Positions 31,007 through 36,403 of a DNA stretch of 64,000 bases are shown in pieces. The position numbers and the translations under genes are program-made. Source of the stretch: Microbacterium sp. (GTDB taxonomy: Bacteria; Actinomycetota; Actinomycetes; Actinomycetales; Microbacteriaceae); contig JAFKIL010000002.1 of NCBI GenBank assembly GCA_017306415.1, positions 310,001 to 374,000 on the forward strand. Direction: 5' to 3'. The notes below the pieces were generated by a model. It made no database searches. It was not told where the DNA came from and worked only from the letters and a program-made list of their open reading frames with translations. Numbering within the stretch: position 1 is the first letter of the stretch; each line of letters starts with the position of its first letter.

Positions 31007-31034
31007 GGGGCGCTTCGCCGGGTGTCGGACACCG
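31007..31034 (+). repeat. Left 28-bp direct repeat of the bacteriocin island
   Basis: The core GCTTCGCCGGGTGTCGGAC (31012-31030) is identical to the copy at 35048-35066. Over 28 nt the match is 26/28, same orientation, 4036 bp apart. Lies in the promoter region of the Pr6Pr gene. Confidence 0.85.
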
Positions 31035-31081
31035 CGACGGATCCCTCGGATGCGCGCGCACGGCTCGGGGCAGCCGATGGG

Positions 31082-32152
31082 TCAGCGGTCTCTGAAGTAG
31101 CGGAAGAGCTGGCGTTCGCTCGTGCGGAGCAAGGCGAGCAGACCGCCGAGGAACGGTCCCACGACGGCGGCGAACCCCACGCGCGCGCCGAGGATCCATC
31201 CGGTCGTTCCGTCGATCGGCGGACCCACGGCCAGCAGGACCGTCACGGTCGTCGCCGTCAGGACGGCGGCGGGGACGGTCCACGCCACCGTCTCGACGGC
31301 CAGCATCGCGCCGAGCGCGCCCTTGCCGACTCCCGCATGCAGGGCGGAGGCCAGTTCGAGTCGCCGGATGCGGACGGACACGAACCCGATGCCCGCCGCG
31401 AGTGCGAGCGCGAGGAGAGCGGCGAACCGCGTCAGGCGATCGTGGAACCGCTGAGCGCCGTCGAAAGCGGCGCCGAGAGTGGAGTTCAGCTGGCCCAGCT
31501 GCGGAGGGTCATCGCTCGGCCCATCCGGGAGGAGGACGGTCCTCATCACGAGCGCGGTCGTCTTCGACTGCGGCCAGATGTCGGCCCAGCACGCATCGAA
31601 CGCTCCCGCCGGCGTCACCGGCGCGAGGACCGCATAGCCGTAGCCGGGGTCGCGACCGTCGCTCGGATACTCGTATACGCCCGTGATGGGTATCCCGCCC
31701 TGGGGCGTGTGCAGCCGTCCGCCGGAGCGGACGCCGAGCAGGTCGGCGGCCTCCCGCGACAGGACGACTCCCTCGGCCGATCCGTGGTCGGCGCGAAGGA
31801 GCTGGAGCACGCCGCCGGTGATGTCCGTCACCGGCAGGGGCGAGGAGGGGAGCTCGATCGCCGTCAGTGGCGATGTACGGGGTCGCAGGGCTCCGGCGGC
31901 TCGGACCCCGGGCAGCGCGTCGAGGGCGTCGCAGGCGACTCCGCTGATCCGGCCTGGAGCGGTGAGGGTGACGACGGAGGCCGCGGACGAGACGTAGGTG
32001 CGAGCGGCGGCTGAGATCTGCTGGACGGAGATCACCTCGAGCGCTGCCAGGCCCGCGGACAGGACGGAGAGGAGCACGGTGAGCAGAGCGGCCCGGGAGG
32101 TGCCGGTCAGGAGGTTGCGCCACGCCTCCTGGAGGAGAGGGCGGAGGGTCAT
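31082..32152 (-). CDS. ABC transporter permease of the bacteriocin island (MacB/FtsX type)
   Basis: 356 residues. An N-terminal helix (about 20-42), an extracytoplasmic domain (about 45-230), then three helices (about 245-270, 285-315, 325-345): the four-helix FtsX/MacB topology of mechanotransmission ABC proteins. The ATG overlaps the ATPase stop by 4 nt. Last gene of the bacteriocin operon. It probably exports the bacteriocin or protects against it, as in MacB- and BceB-like systems. Confidence 0.85.
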   Translation of the reverse strand: MTLRPLLQEAWRNLLTGTSRAALLTVLLSVLSAGLAALEVISVQQISAAARTYVSSAASVVTLTAPGRISGVACDALDALPGVRAAGALRPRTSPLTAIELPSSPLPVTDITGGVLQLLRADHGSAEGVVLSREAADLLGVRSGGRLHTPQGGIPITGVYEYPSDGRDPGYGYAVLAPVTPAGAFDACWADIWPQSKTTALVMRTVLLPDGPSDDPPQLGQLNSTLGAAFDGAQRFHDRLTRFAALLALALAAGIGFVSVRIRRLELASALHAGVGKGALGAMLAVETVAWTVPAAVLTATTVTVLLAVGPPIDGTTGWILGARVGFAAVVGPFLGGLLALLRTSERQLFRYFRDR

Positions 32153-32784
32153 GATCGCGCCCGCCCCGCGTACGGGCCCGATCCCTGGAAGTCTCGGAGG
32201 TCGAGACGATCCGTACAGGCCTCCTGCGTCGCCACGTCGTGGGTGGCGACGACCACGATCGTCTCCGCGGCGCGCAGTGCGGAGATGCCGCGCGTGACCT
32301 CGCGCGCTGTCTGGATGTCGAGCTGCGCGGTGGGCTCGTCGAGGAGGAGCAGGGCCGGCTGGCAGGCGATGCCGCGAGCCAGCATGAGCCGTTGCGCCTC
32401 CCCTCCGGACAGGGCGCGGAAGGGACGGTCCGACACGTGCGTCAGCCCGAACCGGGCGAGTAACCGCAGCGCCTCCCGCTCGGCCTCTCGCCGACCGGCC
32501 CCTGCCGCGAGCAGCGGGAGTGCGACGTGATCGACGGCGCTGCGACCGGCCACGCCGATCGGGTTCTGGAACACCCAGCTCACCTTGCCCGCGCCGACGC
32601 GCGTGATCCGGCCCTCTGCGGGGAGCAGCCAGCCGGAGAGCAGATTCAGGAGCGTGCTCTTCCCCGAGCCGGACGGTCCGGTGAGGGCGTACACCCGCCC
32701 GGGTTCGAGGACGACATCCAGAGCGCGGAAGAGCCAGGGGCCATCCGCGAACCGGTGACCGACGCCCGCGAAGATCACCCGCAC
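32149..32784 (-). CDS. ABC transporter ATP-binding protein of the bacteriocin island
   Basis: 211 residues with intact motifs: Walker A GPSGSGKST (about 36-44), signature LSGGEAQRL (about 122-130), Walker B LLLLDEP, and H-loop ATHD. Belongs to the MacB/LolD group, matching the FtsX-like permease. The GTG at 32784 overlaps the 3' end of the adaptor gene by 10 nt. Confidence 0.92.
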   Translation of the reverse strand: MRVIFAGVGHRFADGPWLFRALDVVLEPGRVYALTGPSGSGKSTLLNLLSGWLLPAEGRITRVGAGKVSWVFQNPIGVAGRSAVDHVALPLLAAGAGRREAEREALRLLARFGLTHVSDRPFRALSGGEAQRLMLARGIACQPALLLLDEPTAQLDIQTAREVTRGISALRAAETIVVVATHDVATQEACTDRLDLRDFQGSGPYAGRARS

Positions 32785-33809
32785 GATCCGGCATCCTTCG
32801 GTGCGATCTCCACGGCGGTGGGCACGGTGCCTCCGCCAGGGAATGTGACGAAGCTCACGCCGAGCTCGGAGCCGACCACCGTCACCCGGTGGGGAGTGCC
32901 GCCCGCGAGCACGCAGGCTGTCGAACCCTCGACGGCGTACAGGGCGGCGGGCGGGACACTCGAGACGCGCACGGGCCGTGCGAGCGCGAGGTCCGCCGTG
33001 AACGTCGTCGCCGAGTTCCGCCGCGCCTCGCGGTAGAGCGGTGACGCAGCGATCTTCGCCAATGCGTCCGCGTCGACGATCCTGCCGTCGGCCCCCACGG
33101 GCACGCGCTGATCACCGAGGACGAGGACGCGCGCACCGCCCGGGCCGCCGGTCGGCAGGGCGACCGAGGCGGAGATCGGGCCGGCGGCGACCTCGGCGAC
33201 GTCGCCTCCGGCCTCGACCTGCGCTCCCGTCGCAGTCGAGCACTCCGTCACGGTCGTCTCGGCGCGGGGCAGCCACAGGAAGCGGCTCGCGGGAACGCTG
33301 CTCTCGTACGGCCGCTGCCCGGCCGGACGGGAGAGCAGCTGGTCGACGGCGGCCAGCGTCCTCGCTCCGACGATTCCGTCGACGACGACCGGGTGGCCCA
33401 GCCGGTTCAGCTCCTCCTGCACCGCGGCGACGTCGTCGCCCTTGTCGCCCCTGACGAGGTCGCGCCACAGCGGGACCCGTGTCGAGAGGTTCACGACGGA
33501 CTGCCCGTCCACCCGGAGGTTCGACTCGCCCGAGACGAAGGGCTCGTCCGGTGAGCAGCGGAACGCCGTGACGCGGCCACCGGTGGGTGCCGACAGTCTC
33601 GTGTCGACTCCGAGCCGCACGACGACCTCCGCCGAACGGAGGTCGGAGAACGACTGTTCCGTGAGCGGAACCGCCCGCACCGTCGGCGCGGCGCCGAGCG
33701 ATCGCGGTGTCGCGTCCGCCTCGAGGAGGACACCGCCGATCACGCCGATCCCGGCTACGGCGGCGAGTGTCACGGCCGAGAGGGCGAGCGCCGGACGACT
33801 GAGCTTCAC
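32775..33809 (-). CDS. Peptidoglycan-binding, HlyD/adaptor-like membrane protein of the bacteriocin island
   Basis: 344 residues. One N-terminal membrane helix (about 7-29). Residues ~118-165 form a peptidoglycan-binding domain of the PG_binding_1 type (DDVAAVQEELNRLGHPVVVDG). Flanking beta-rich segments resemble the barrel-sandwich hybrid of membrane-fusion adaptors such as HlyD. In a Gram-positive it would bridge the permease and the cell wall. The ABC operon order (adaptor, ATPase, permease) is that of MacAB-like systems. It follows the lipoprotein gene by 45 nt. Confidence 0.83.
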   Translation of the reverse strand: MKLSRPALALSAVTLAAVAGIGVIGGVLLEADATPRSLGAAPTVRAVPLTEQSFSDLRSAEVVVRLGVDTRLSAPTGGRVTAFRCSPDEPFVSGESNLRVDGQSVVNLSTRVPLWRDLVRGDKGDDVAAVQEELNRLGHPVVVDGIVGARTLAAVDQLLSRPAGQRPYESSVPASRFLWLPRAETTVTECSTATGAQVEAGGDVAEVAAGPISASVALPTGGPGGARVLVLGDQRVPVGADGRIVDADALAKIAASPLYREARRNSATTFTADLALARPVRVSSVPPAALYAVEGSTACVLAGGTPHRVTVVGSELGVSFVTFPGGGTVPTAVEIAPKDAGSCG

Positions 33810-33854
33810 GCGCGGCCCCCCGACTCGCGACCCTCGGCTTCGCCGGCAGCCACG

Positions 33855-34403
33855 CTACTTCTTCTCGAAGTGCAGCGGGTCGGCGTCGCACTCGTCGAAG
33901 AGCGGCGAGGCACTGATCCGCGCCATGTCCACGCCGCTGTCGTACATCTCCGCCGTGTAGCTCGACTCGACGAGGTGCACGCGCTGCAGACAGTCGACCA
34001 TGATCTTCCCCTCGTCGAGATGCGACGGATTCCTCCGCATCGCATCGCGCAGCGTGATCGTCCGGATGCCGTTGCCGGCGTTGCAGGCCTGGACGGCGTC
34101 GCGGTCGATCGGTGTCGAGCGGCTGGTCGCGTACGTGAGTGTTCCTTCGGCATCGAACGACGCCTTCAGCCCCAGTCCGTCCAGGCACCGCAGGATGGCC
34201 GCTTGCAGTTCGCTGTACTCGGCATCGGTGATGCGGCCGTCGCTGAGCACCTTGCGCTCCAGGTCGGACGACGCCTGAGCCGACGTCGCCGAGATGTCGG
34301 CTGCCCACGATTTCTCACTGTCGCTCGACGCGTGGCCCGCGCCGCAGCCGCTCAGGACGAGGGCTGCGGCGCAGACCAGCGCGAGCAGGGAGGCCCGGCG
34401 CAT
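33855..34403 (-). CDS. Lipoprotein of the bacteriocin island
   Basis: 182 residues. A signal peptide ends in the lipobox LSGC, with Cys at residue 20. The mature part is soluble, with conserved-looking cysteines near residues 73, 106, 137 and 171. I recognise no family. Its ATG directly follows the bacteriocin stop (TGAATG), so translation is probably coupled. A surface lipoprotein beside a bacteriocin could be the immunity factor or a processing helper; this is inference. Confidence 0.8.
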   Translation of the reverse strand: MRRASLLALVCAAALVLSGCGAGHASSDSEKSWAADISATSAQASSDLERKVLSDGRITDAEYSELQAAILRCLDGLGLKASFDAEGTLTYATSRSTPIDRDAVQACNAGNGIRTITLRDAMRRNPSHLDEGKIMVDCLQRVHLVESSYTAEMYDSGVDMARISASPLFDECDADPLHFEKK

Positions 34404-34772
34404 TCAGTACGTGTTCCAGTACGCGGTGTTGAAGGCAGGCGAGGCGGGCACCGATGCCTTGGCCCAGACGTTCTTCGCCTTCACGACCTGCTTGCACGTC
34501 ACGAAGATCGCCCCGTCGCACGCGGTCGCGCTGTGGTACTTCGTCGGGTGGTGATAGTTCGACCACGAGTTTCCGAACGGGAACCCGTCCCGCCCGTACT
34601 GCCACAGCCCACCGCCCACCTTCTTGGTCGTCGTCGGCACCATCCGGCTGTCCACGGCGGACGACGGCGTGGTGCTCGCGCTCGCGGCAGCGGCGGGAGC
34701 GAGAACCAGCGCACCGAGCGCCAGACCTCCGATCACCCAGGCGACTCGCCGGTGCTTCTTCTTCTCGTACAT
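34404..34772 (-). CDS. Lactococcin-972-family bacteriocin precursor
   Basis: 122 residues from the ATG at 34772 (GAGAGG 7 nt upstream). A Sec signal peptide ([16 protein letters not shown], hydrophobic core to about residue 30) ends near ASAS. The mature part has the lactococcin 972 hallmarks in order: GGGLWQYG (53-60), [12 protein letters not shown] (71-82), VWAKA (102-106), and an aromatic C-terminus AYWNTY. Lactococcin 972 binds lipid II and blocks septum formation. Unlike lactococcin 972, this one has two cysteines (C85, C93). First gene of a five-gene operon with lipoprotein, adaptor, ATPase and permease. Confidence 0.93.
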
Positions 34773-34789
34773 GTTTCGACCTCTCTCTT

Positions 34790-34818
34790 GTGCACACATG
34801 CATGGGTGCACGGTGCAT
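34790..34818. promoter_or_regulatory. Repeated GTGCAC motifs in the bacteriocin 5' leader
   Basis: GTGCAC occurs at 34790-34795 and 34806-34811, with ATGCAT between (34798-34803) and a related GTGCAT at 34813-34818. All are palindromic or nearly so. They sit between a possible -10 TAGCCT (plus 34826-34831) and the bacteriocin SD, where a repressor or RNA fold could act. Confidence 0.45.
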
Positions 34819-34871
34819 TCATGAGAGGCTAGTTGGGGTCGGCACACCGTCGGGACCGGAGGAGAGAATCT

Positions 34872-35021
34872 GTGGATATCGTCGGACTGATCTTCACCGC
34901 ACTCGTCCTCGGGTGCCTCGGTCTGGGGGCCCTGTTCGGGTACCTGCTTCTCACGTCCCGACGAGCGTCTCGCCGCGCGACCGAGCGATGGGAGCGGTCA
35001 GGAACCGACCGGACGGACTGA
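34872..35021 (+). CDS. 49-residue membrane peptide, divergent from the bacteriocin gene
   Basis: GTG start with a strong GGAGGAG 8 nt upstream. One helix (about residues 4-26, [20 protein letters not shown]) is followed by a basic tail ([14 protein letters not shown]). No family recognised. It lies inside the 28-bp repeats, so it belongs to the island by position. Small membrane peptides are a common form of bacteriocin immunity, but nothing in the sequence proves that role. Confidence 0.65.
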
Positions 35022-35042
35022 CTCGTCTCCTCGGCGTCGCCA

Positions 35043-35070
35043 GGGGTGCTTCGCCGGGTGTCGGACGCCG
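35043..35070 (+). repeat. Right 28-bp direct repeat of the bacteriocin island
   Basis: Second copy of the island-bounding repeat (26/28 with 31007-31034). It ends 5 nt before the purA -10 TAGGAT (35076-35081), so it occupies the purA -35 region. Confidence 0.85.
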
Positions 35071-35116
35071 ACCGATAGGATGGGGTGTACCGTCGGCCCG
35101 TACCGAGGAGCTCCCC

Positions 35117-36403
35117 ATGCCAGGAATCGTCATCGTCGGAGTGCAGTGGGGAGACGAGGGCAAGGGCAAGGCCACCGACCTCCTGGGTGAGCGCACCGAC
35201 TGGGTCGTCAAGTTCAACGGCGGCAACAACGCGGGCCACACCGTCGTCATCGGCGACGAGAAGTACGCCCTGCACCTCCTGCCCAGCGGCATCCTCAGTC
35301 CGGGGGTCACTCCCGTCATCGGCAACGGCGTCGTCGTCGACCTCGAGGTGCTGTTCGCCGAGCTCGAGGCGCTCGCCGCGCGCGGCGTCGACACCTCGCG
35401 GCTGCGCGTGAGTGCGAACGCGCACATCATCACGCAGTACCACCGGACCCTCGACAAGGTCACCGAGCGCTTCCTCGGCAAGCGCCAGATCGGCACGACC
35501 GGTCGCGGCATCGGCCCGGCCTACGCCGACAAGATCAACCGCGTGGGCATCCGCGCGCAGGACCTCTTCGACGAGAACATCCTGCGCCAGAAGGTCGAGG
35601 GCGCCCTCGACCAGAAGAACCACCTGCTGGTCAAGGTGTTCAACCGCCGTGCGATCTCATGCGACGAGATCGTCGACGACCTGCTGTCGTACGCCGAGCG
35701 GCTGCGGCCGATGGTGGCCGACACCGGCCTGATGCTCAACGAGGCGCTCGACGCCGGCGACGTCGTCGTCTTCGAGGGCGGCCAGGCGACGATGCTCGAC
35801 GTCGACCACGGCACCTATCCGTTCGTGACGTCCTCCTCCGCCACCGCGGGCGGTGCGGCCACGGGGTCGGGCGTCGGCCCGAACCGCCTCGATCGCATCG
35901 TCGGCATCGTGAAGGCCTACACGACCCGGGTCGGCTCCGGACCCTTCCCGACGGAGCTCCACGACGAGCAGGGCGAGTGGCTGCGCTCGCGCGGCTTCGA
36001 GTTCGGCACCACGACGGGCCGCCCGCGACGGGTGGGCTGGTACGACGCGCCCATCACGCGCTACGCCACGCGGATCAACGGGATCACCGATCTCGTCCTC
36101 ACCAAGCTCGACATCCTGACAGGACTCGACGAGATCCCGGTGTGCGTGGCCTACGACGTCGACGGGGTGCGTTTCGACGAAGTGCCCGTCAACCAGTCGG
36201 ACTTCCACCACGCGCGGCCGGTCCTCGAGTATCTCCCCGGCTGGAAGGACGACATCTCCGGTGCCCGCACGTTCGACGAGCTCCCGCTCGAGGCGCAGGA
36301 CTACGTGCTCGCCCTCGAGGCGATGAGCGGCACGCGCATCTCGGTGATCGGCGTCGGGGCCGCGCGCGACGCGGTCATCGTGCGCCACGACCTCGTCGAC
36401 TGA
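35117..36403 (+). CDS. purA: Adenylosuccinate synthetase
   Basis: 428 residues, full length. Makes adenylosuccinate from IMP and aspartate using GTP, the first committed step to AMP. The P-loop-like WGDEGKGK (11-18) has catalytic D13, and NAGHT places catalytic H41; [12 protein letters not shown] follows. The ATG has GAGGAG 6 nt upstream and a leader of about 30 nt from TAGGAT. The next gene overlaps the stop by 1 nt. Confidence 0.98.

What the first reader, a model, noticed from the sequence alone, without database searches (positions are those of the whole stretch)
31007..35070. Lactococcin-972-type bacteriocin island with its own ABC exporter, adaptor and lipoprotein
Seen: a secreted peptide with the lactococcin 972 motif order ([25 protein letters not shown], aromatic end) heads a five-gene operon (lipoprotein, peptidoglycan-binding adaptor, MacB-type ATPase and permease) and is divergent from a 49-residue membrane peptide. 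Known: lactococcin 972 binds lipid II, and its locus encodes an immunity protein and ABC proteins. Inference: a complete actinobacterial bacteriocin/immunity module. The set of partners differs from the lactococcal locus (no large DUF1430-type membrane protein), so the export and immunity parts may be new.
Basis: partly seen in the sequence, partly recalled or inferred. Interest (0 to 1): 0.85.

Follow-up and report, generated by a model that had tools for sequence, protein, structure and literature searches.

The report
Bacteriocin island with paired immunity module
A Microbacterium-like bacterium carries a small inserted gene set for a secreted peptide of the lactococcin 972 bacteriocin family, with a lipoprotein and a three-part pump that most likely protect the maker, and relatives of that protective set stand beside many different unstudied secreted peptides in actinobacteria.

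Summary
Observation confirmed. P0001 (34404-34772, -) is a Sec-signal lactococcin 972 peptide (Pfam 54.7 bits, cut-off 22), followed closely by a lipoprotein, an adaptor with a peptidoglycan-binding domain, an ABC ATPase and a FtsX/MacB-like permease. The set is an insertion: a 28-base direct repeat (26/28), its 19-base core found only twice in the genome, bounds 4,036 bases; without them the flanking genes would be 107 bases apart, as in 11 of 17 relatives (76-144).

The interpretation needs correcting. The peptide has its own Sec signal, so the ABC proteins more likely give immunity than export. The five-gene order stands at 10 of 11 lactococcin 972 places in the genus (366 genomes searched). 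The partner genes are not tied to lactococcin 972: of 80 related actinobacterial loci, 70 keep lipoprotein-adaptor-ATPase-permease in order, but 18 have lactococcin 972; many others have unannotated small secreted peptides just before the lipoprotein (23 of 71 lipoprotein genes, controls 1 of 284). The lipoprotein belongs to no named family; its confident model matches no PDB fold.

Best reading: a payload-swapping bacteriocin module with two-layer immunity. No activity has been shown.

The parts
34404..34772 (-). Lactococcin 972 family bacteriocin precursor (P0001, 122 aa); Sec-like signal about residues 1-32; PF09683 match 53-119; C-x7-C pair inside the domain
33855..34403 (-). Lipoprotein (P0002, 182 aa), lipid-anchor Cys20 plus four invariant Cys (73, 107, 138, 172); likely cognate immunity protein
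32775..33809 (-). Membrane-anchored adaptor (P0003, 344 aa) with a peptidoglycan-binding domain at about 119-173 and a weak lipoyl-like match behind it (181-222)
32149..32784 (-). ABC ATPase (P0004); best NCBIfam matches include FtsE and LolD, all below cut-off
31082..32152 (-). ABC permease (P0005, 356 aa), member of an unnamed family distantly related to FtsX/MacB
31007..31034 (.). Left copy of the 28-base direct repeat bounding the insertion
35043..35070 (.). Right copy of the direct repeat, in the upstream region of the gene that starts at 35117
31035..35070 (.). Inserted segment, 4,036 bases (one repeat copy counted with it)
34872..35021 (+). Divergent open frame of 49 residues (P0006), hydrophobic N-terminus; no relatives found, gene status doubtful

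Best explanation
An inserted bacteriocin cassette. The first gene makes a lactococcin 972 family peptide that leaves the cell by the Sec route and, like lactococcin 972, probably binds lipid II of near relatives and blocks septum or wall synthesis (inferred from the family). The other four genes protect the producer in two layers: a lipid-anchored surface protein, matched to the peptide, that intercepts it or shields its target, and a MacB/YknZ-like ABC permease with its ATPase and a wall-binding, MacA/YknX-like adaptor that removes the peptide from the membrane or from lipid II. The four-gene protection set is an actinobacterial chassis found with several kinds of small secreted peptide; lactococcin 972 is one of its payloads. 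Shown: family membership, gene order, insertion, conservation of the set, other secreted peptides at the same position. Inferred: killing, lipid II as target, the immunity roles, the pump's direction.
For: Family: (profile A1 finds 2LGN, lactococcin 972, E 6.4e-10). Insertion. Conserved set: five genes in order at 10 of 11 places in 10 of 366 genomes (one has its permease cut by a contig end); permease at E below 1e-50 in 9 of 10 lactococcin 972 genomes and in 18 of the other 356 (the profile was built from the former). Chassis: 70 of 80 loci keep lipoprotein-adaptor-ATPase-permease in order, 18 of 80 have lactococcin 972. Other payloads: a short Sec-like ORF with ATG and ribosome site ends just before 23 of 71 lipoprotein genes in loci without lactococcin 972, against 1 of 284 control genes of the same loci; with any start codon, 11 of 20 further genus loci. 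Lipoprotein tied to payload: G301 has bacteriocin and lipoprotein without the pump; L119 has two peptide-lipoprotein pairs on the strand opposite the pump; on 150-column bootstraps the label 'lactococcin 972' changes a median of 5 times on lipoprotein trees against 8, 9 and 8 for adaptor, ATPase and permease. Protection without weapon: some sets have no peptide in sight, and L086 has only a lactococcin 972 fragment.
Against: No activity, expression or binding data exist for these loci. By the strict scan 48 of 71 lipoprotein genes without lactococcin 972 have no peptide; some of these have one that the scan missed (L153, L154), others seem to have none. With any start codon and no ribosome site required, the scan finds an ORF at 47 of 90 lipoprotein genes but also at 47 of 284 controls, so only the strict figures carry weight. 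On full-length trees the lipoprotein's lead is small (changes for lipoprotein, adaptor, ATPase, permease: 5, 5, 7, 6; 4, 5, 8, 8). G301 shows that a carrier may do without the pump. The pump could instead take part in release or folding of the peptide.
Confidence: 0.7

Rival explanations
1. The ABC set is a dedicated exporter or maturation machine for the peptide: adaptor and pump carry the peptide through the wall, and the lipoprotein is a chaperone.
For: MacAB-type pumps can export peptides (recalled); the adaptor's peptidoglycan-binding domain would suit passage through the wall; the bacteriocin gene comes first at each of the 11 genus places.
Against: P0001 and the other payloads have Sec-like signals of their own (for the other payloads the scan required one); G301 has bacteriocin and lipoprotein without the pump; some sets seem to have no peptide, which only protection would favour.
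Confidence: 0.15
2. The set is a general envelope-stress or antimicrobial-peptide resistance system, and most of the peptides are not bacteriocins but signals or structural secreted proteins; the lactococcin 972 link is one use among others.
For: The other payloads match no NCBIfam model and hardly any Pfam model; no killing has been shown.
Against: PF09683 includes bacteriocins with shown activity (lactococcin 972, streptococcin B; PMC4055356, PMC11796350, passages); the small peptide just before the lipoprotein is far above control (23 of 71 against 1 of 284); rare, scattered occurrence (10 of 366 genomes) and insertion at the window site suit a weapon-immunity set.
Confidence: 0.12
3. The flanking direct repeat is chance and the set is ancestral at this place, lost in relatives.
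For: G+C of the segment (0.709) is that of the window (0.717); none of 8 other genus loci has an exact repeat at its ends above control; 6 of 17 relatives have 212-1232 bases between the flanking genes.
Against: The repeat's core is found only at the two ends in the genome; taking out 4,036 bases leaves 107, within the 76-144 of 11 of 17 relatives; none of the nine stretches with the genus's other lactococcin 972 places matches the window's flanks.
Confidence: 0.08

Closest known systems
Lactococcin 972 operon of Lactococcus lactis plasmid pBL1 (lcn972-orf2-orf3) and pneumococcal scbABC
   Same: Secreted PF09683-type peptide first, protection/ABC genes behind it; strains that keep the partner genes without the peptide are known for scb (PMC11796350, passages; PMC4055356, passages).
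   Different: Here no DUF1430 protein; instead a lipoprotein, a peptidoglycan-binding adaptor and another permease family; the ATPase scores far below the TIGR03608 cut-off (103.7 against 254.85).
Lactococcin 972-related cluster of Brevibacterium aurantiacum and relatives
   Same: Actinobacterial; bacteriocin gene in an operon with genes for two transmembrane proteins and an ABC ATPase, on a genomic island (PMC5719810, passages).
   Different: The passage names no lipoprotein or wall-binding adaptor; whether the genes are of the same families was not tested here.
YknWXYZ of Bacillus (protection against the SDP toxin)
   Same: Adaptor, separate ATPase and MacB-like permease that protect against a peptide toxin of the same species (PMC4887032, abstract and passages).
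   Different: No lipoprotein there; no YknW counterpart seen here; the adaptor here carries a peptidoglycan-binding domain; the permease family has no PDB sequence match.
Nisin immunity NisI plus NisFEG
   Same: Lipoprotein plus ABC transporter against a lipid II binder (recalled; the pair appears in a reference title of PMC4055356).
   Different: No sequence comparison with NisI was made; P0002 matches no named family and its model no PDB fold.

Membership tests
Lactococcin 972 bacteriocins (PF09683 / TIGR01653) | Match to the curated models above cut-off | tested here: met
   54.7 bits, cut-off 22; 39.9, cut-off 32.1
Lactococcin 972 bacteriocins (PF09683 / TIGR01653) | N-terminal Sec signal and short mature chain | tested here: met
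   translation read by eye; 122 aa precursor; no signal-peptide program was run
Lactococcin 972 bacteriocins (PF09683 / TIGR01653) | Sequence relation to a solved family member | tested here: met
   profile A1 (11 sequences, P0001 first) finds 2LGN (E 6.4e-10) and 9HKJ (E 1.7e-5)
Lactococcin 972 bacteriocins (PF09683 / TIGR01653) | Kills relatives, binds lipid II | not testable with these tools
   needs the peptide
Classical lactococcin 972 operon | DUF1430-type partner and TIGR03608 ATPase | tested here: not met
   no DUF1430 match in the genome; control L. lactis matches; ATPase 103.7 against cut-off 254.85; no family for the permease
MacAB/YknXYZ-type ABC systems | Permease of the MacB/FtsX kind | tested here: inconclusive
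   one FtsX match (2.5e-5) and one MacB_PCD match (0.0013) among 9 family members, none for P0005; no PDB sequence match; no model of the permease was made
MacAB/YknXYZ-type ABC systems | Adaptor with lipoyl and hairpin parts | tested here: inconclusive
   weak lipoyl match at 181-222 (E 0.02), peptidoglycan-binding matches at 119-173 (E 0.006 to 0.016); PG_binding_3 just above its cut-off (24.9 against 24.6), PG_binding_1 below
Mobile genomic island | Bounded insertion with empty site in relatives | tested here: met
Mobile genomic island | Own integrase or transposase | tested here: not met
   the segment holds the five genes and the P0006 frame, none of them a recombinase

The most novel reading that the evidence does not exclude
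Actinobacteria share a modular bacteriocin system that I found no description of: a conserved protection chassis (an unnamed lipoprotein family with four invariant Cys beside its anchor and possibly a new fold, a wall-binding adaptor, a MacB-like ABC pair) behind an exchangeable small Sec-secreted peptide. Lactococcin 972 is only one payload; at least six other groups of unannotated peptides (in Bifidobacterium, Nocardiopsis, Actinoplanes, Cellulomonas, Cellulosimicrobium, Microbacterium and others) would be undiscovered bacteriocins, each with a matched lipoprotein.
Probability: 0.6. Interest if true: 0.78.

Novelty: new variant of a known kind. Interest (0 to 1): 0.62.

Why it matters
Which gene gives immunity to lactococcin 972-type peptides is said to be unverified in any such locus (PMC11796350, passages), though the lactococcal cluster as a whole raises the MIC of Lcn972 (12.5 AU/mL without it, 800-1600 for the plasmids seen in the table; PMC4055356). 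This locus offers a compact set in which single deletions would tell, and the lipoprotein is a ready probe for peptides that no family model recognises, including in bifidobacteria.

Tried and rejected
Search of 99 genomes of the genus for the repeat's core (up to 2 mismatches): outside the window's genome 31 places, each with two mismatches, against 46 for the reversed control, so it is not a widespread attachment site (my sums). Exact repeats at the ends of 8 other genus loci: none above control. Lactococcin 972 across the phylum: 4 of 396 sampled genomes, the window's included, so it is rare. Profile comparison of 26 other peptides with lactococcin 972 aligned only the signal peptides; single-sequence comparison gave weak links to lactococcin 972 peptides (best E 1e-4; L140-L125 at 2e-4 reaches into the mature part), so neither common descent nor its absence is shown. 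The model of one other payload (L162) is all-beta but of low confidence (pLDDT 66.5); its PDB search gave nothing below E 0.04, and 2LGN is not among the 50 rows listed. Lipoprotein fold: best PDB match E 1.3, TM 0.24. Plasmids: P0001 finds one Enterococcus record (41.7% over 66%), P0003 and P0005 none. Antiphage library: matches only for the ATPase, which I take as generic. RNA families for a leader-like motif in relatives: none at gathering threshold in 5 loci, nothing credible below it in one. One strict peptide call (L163) looks like a wrong-frame ORF; it is inside the 34 of 90 and 23 of 71 and outside the 22 listed. By my pattern 18 of 92 lipoprotein genes had no lipobox start, several of which show an obvious one by eye; rows of the 65-member alignment taken from the 80 loci were chosen among those with a lipobox, so the constancy of the anchor Cys is partly by choice, that of the other four is not.
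Full report
WHAT IS THERE. On the minus strand between 34772 and 31082 lie five genes: a 122-residue precursor (P0001), a lipoprotein (P0002), a membrane-anchored protein with a peptidoglycan-binding domain (P0003), an ABC ATPase (P0004) and a permease (P0005). The first two adjoin without a base between them, the next gap is 45 bases, and the last three overlap by 10 and 4 bases, so one transcript is likely though not shown; the simple scan finds no terminator-like site inside. P0001 passes the curated cut-offs of Pfam PF09683 (54.7 against 22 bits) and NCBIfam TIGR01653 (39.9 against 32.1). It is the only such match found in the 3.76 Mb genome. A profile of 11 genus members finds lactococcin 972 itself among solved structures (2LGN, E 6.4e-10) and a second family structure, 9HKJ (E 1.7e-5). 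The genus is Microbacterium by inference: contigs of several genus genomes have the lengths of named Microbacterium records.

THE INSERTION. With up to two mismatches its 19-base core is found exactly twice in the genome, the reversed control not at all. The gene on the right (start 35117; I call it purA from recall) was searched in relatives; in 19 of the 29 loci compared, similarity to the window begins at 35056-35074, in or next to the right repeat copy, and in the other 10 at 35114-35115. In 17 of these 29 the left neighbour (a membrane protein that I would call Pr6Pr-like from recall) was found upstream and divergent; in 11 of the 17 the two starts lie 76-144 bases apart, in the other six 212-1232. 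Here they lie 4143 bases apart, 107 without 4,036 bases. So the set was most likely inserted upstream of that gene, with a copy of the site on each side. It holds no recombinase. The segment's G+C (0.709) is that of the window (0.717), so the source was probably a similar genome. None of eight other genus loci has an exact repeat at its ends above control, against 19 bases here and a control maximum of 16; how it was inserted is unknown.

CONSERVATION IN THE GENUS. PF09683 is found at 11 places in 10 of 366 genomes. tblastn with the window's proteins, read together with the PF09683 places, shows bacteriocin, lipoprotein, adaptor, ATPase and permease in this order at 10 of the 11 places, counting the window and one place whose permease is cut by a contig end; G301 has only bacteriocin and lipoprotein. 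Identities to the window are 25-44% for the bacteriocin, 23-33% for the lipoprotein, 29-37% for the adaptor, 47-62% for the ATPase and 32-44% for the permease. By eye the places have different neighbours, except that L048 and L049 share theirs. The permease profile is found at E below 1e-50 in 27 of 366 genomes: 9 of the 10 with lactococcin 972 and 18 of the other 356 (the profile was built from the former). The lipoprotein profile is found in 55 of 366 at E up to 1e-6, among them all 10. In the window's own genome the lipoprotein has no second copy.

THE CHASSIS CARRIES OTHER PEPTIDES. A scan of the GTDB genome collection with one pattern from the permease alignment gave 87 confirmed loci, of which the best 80 were kept; the 80 titles listed are actinobacterial. 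With profiles from the genus, 70 of 80 loci have lipoprotein, adaptor, ATPase and permease in order on one strand; the other ten lack the lipoprotein at that place (L109 also the ATPase by my threshold), and five of them have it elsewhere in the locus (L109, L118, L119, L148, L151). Lactococcin 972 is present in 18 of 80 (17 by script, L095 added by hand). Six of the 80 are places of the genus seen before (L099, L127, L129, L133, L160, L161). I then looked for short open frames with a Sec-like signal just before each lipoprotein gene. With ATG and a ribosome site required, 34 of 90 lipoprotein genes have one, against 1 of 284 other genes of the same loci; without these two requirements the figures are 47 of 90 and 47 of 284. 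In loci without lactococcin 972 the strict numbers are 23 of 71 against 1 of 284 (Fisher p 6e-17). These precursors have 95-144 residues (L163 left out). By links of E up to 1e-5 they form six groups of two or more: L121, L124, L134 (Bifidobacterium) with L148 (Pseudoclavibacter); L090, L097, L106, L111, L131, L162, each with two Cys in the stretch aligned (one search shows five of them); L102, L103 (Nocardiopsis), L136, L140 (Actinoplanes); L117, L142, L145, L157 (Bifidobacterium and kin); the two of L119; L152 with L161. Links between groups and to lactococcin 972 are weak (1e-4 or worse) and partly lie in the signal. Of 26 such peptides (including L090, L102, L103 from the weak scan and one found by hand in L044) none matches an NCBIfam model at E 0.01, and three Pfam families match one member each, best E 0.00018. 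I fetched 20 more genus stretches with the permease or lipoprotein but no lactococcin 972 at that place (L227 is the same place as L161): 18 of 20 keep the order, L225 has its lipoproteins on the other strand and L236 only a permease remnant; 11 of 20 have a candidate peptide with a ribosome site, 8 of them with ATG, in three clear groups plus a single one. Ten of these 11 were given to NCBIfam and match nothing. The scan is crude and misses real ones (L153, L154). Other sets seem to have no peptide, for example some of Schaalia and Bifidobacterium (ten loci viewed by eye), and L086 has only a lactococcin 972 fragment on the other strand. In a sample of the window's family, 38 of 299 genomes match the permease at E up to 0.001.

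THE LIPOPROTEIN. In 65 members the anchor Cys and four further Cys do not vary (the anchor partly by the way rows were chosen). No Pfam model names it, and one of 65 members has a weak hit to an entry-exclusion lipoprotein of NCBIfam. The AlphaFold2 model of P0002 is confident (mean pLDDT 89.7), mostly helical with one small hairpin; the best PDB match has E 1.3. I read it as the cognate immunity protein for three reasons. It is there with the bacteriocin where the pump is absent (G301). It is multiplied beside peptides: G160 has a second copy next to another secreted Cys-containing peptide, L119 has two peptide-lipoprotein pairs opposite to the pump, and 11 of 80 loci have more than one lipoprotein, though not each with a peptide. 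And with all genes cut to 150 columns its trees separate lactococcin 972 loci from others better than those of the other genes (median 5 changes against 8, 9 and 8 in 40 bootstraps; 68 loci, 17 with lactococcin 972; shuffled labels about 15 on the full trees). On full-length trees the lead is small: 5, 5, 7, 6 for lipoprotein, adaptor, ATPase, permease, 8.

THE PUMP. The permease family is unnamed; among 9 members there is one match to FtsX (2.5e-5) and one to MacB_PCD (0.0013), and no PDB sequence matches. The adaptor has a peptidoglycan-binding domain followed by a weak lipoyl-like match, as if that domain sat where MacA-type adaptors have their hairpin (inference). Because the peptides have Sec-like signals and lactococcin 972-like peptides are thought to leave by Sec (PMC11796350, passages), I take the pump as protection, as YknWXYZ protects Bacillus against SDP (PMC4887032, abstract and passages). 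Its direction is inferred.

WHAT IS KNOWN. The lactococcal operon has two partner genes, orf2 and orf3, called immunity genes (PMC4055356, passages), and for streptococcin B the partner functions are said to be unverified in any such locus (PMC11796350). In Brevibacterium an operon with two membrane proteins and an ATPase was reported (PMC5719810, passages), and in Propionibacterium acnes one clade lost only the lactococcin 972-domain gene of an island (PMC4746626, passage), which parallels the sets without peptide seen here. My nine paper searches listed nothing that by title or start of abstract describes the four-gene set with other peptides; the library is open-access only, and I saw passages of seven papers, so this is weak evidence of novelty. 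Overall: the bacteriocin is a new member of a known family; its protection set is an undescribed variant as far as I could see; the wider payload-swapping system is the bold reading.

Noticed in passing
L044 9824-10129 and 9180-9752 (G160): Beside the lactococcin 972 set, on the other strand, another secreted Cys-containing peptide with a second lipoprotein copy; the same genome has seven lipoprotein matches in all.
   Followed up: partly
L066, L067, L069, L073, L074, L076, L077, L080, just before the purA-like start: A conserved leader-like stretch with CAGCTCAnCnGCCGGTGCAAACCCGGCG precedes this gene in part of the genus (by eye); no Rfam family reaches its threshold in the 5 loci scanned, nor credibly in one scanned loosely. 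The window has another sequence there.
   Followed up: partly
L048 and L049 (G216, G335): Both lactococcin 972 sets lie beside what looks by recall like a cell-division and wall cluster (FHA, phosphatase, FtsW/RodA, penicillin-binding protein genes).
   Followed up: no
window 34404-34772; L044, L045 (same place as L160), L085, L094, L095, L112, L137, L149: Some actinobacterial lactococcin 972 peptides have a close Cys pair (C-x4 to x8-C; x7 in the window) after the H-x-A/S-T-A stretch, perhaps a disulfide-closed loop.
   Followed up: no
MT837291.1 3937-5010 (hit H2): A 7.2 kb 'Bacteriophage sp.' record from human faeces encodes a full-length relative of the permease (32.4%); it may be a bacterial fragment or a phage-borne set.
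   Followed up: no
G196:C1:191703-192436 (L236): A lipoprotein with a strong match (1.4e-54) beside a 46-residue remnant of the permease: probably a decaying set.
   Followed up: no
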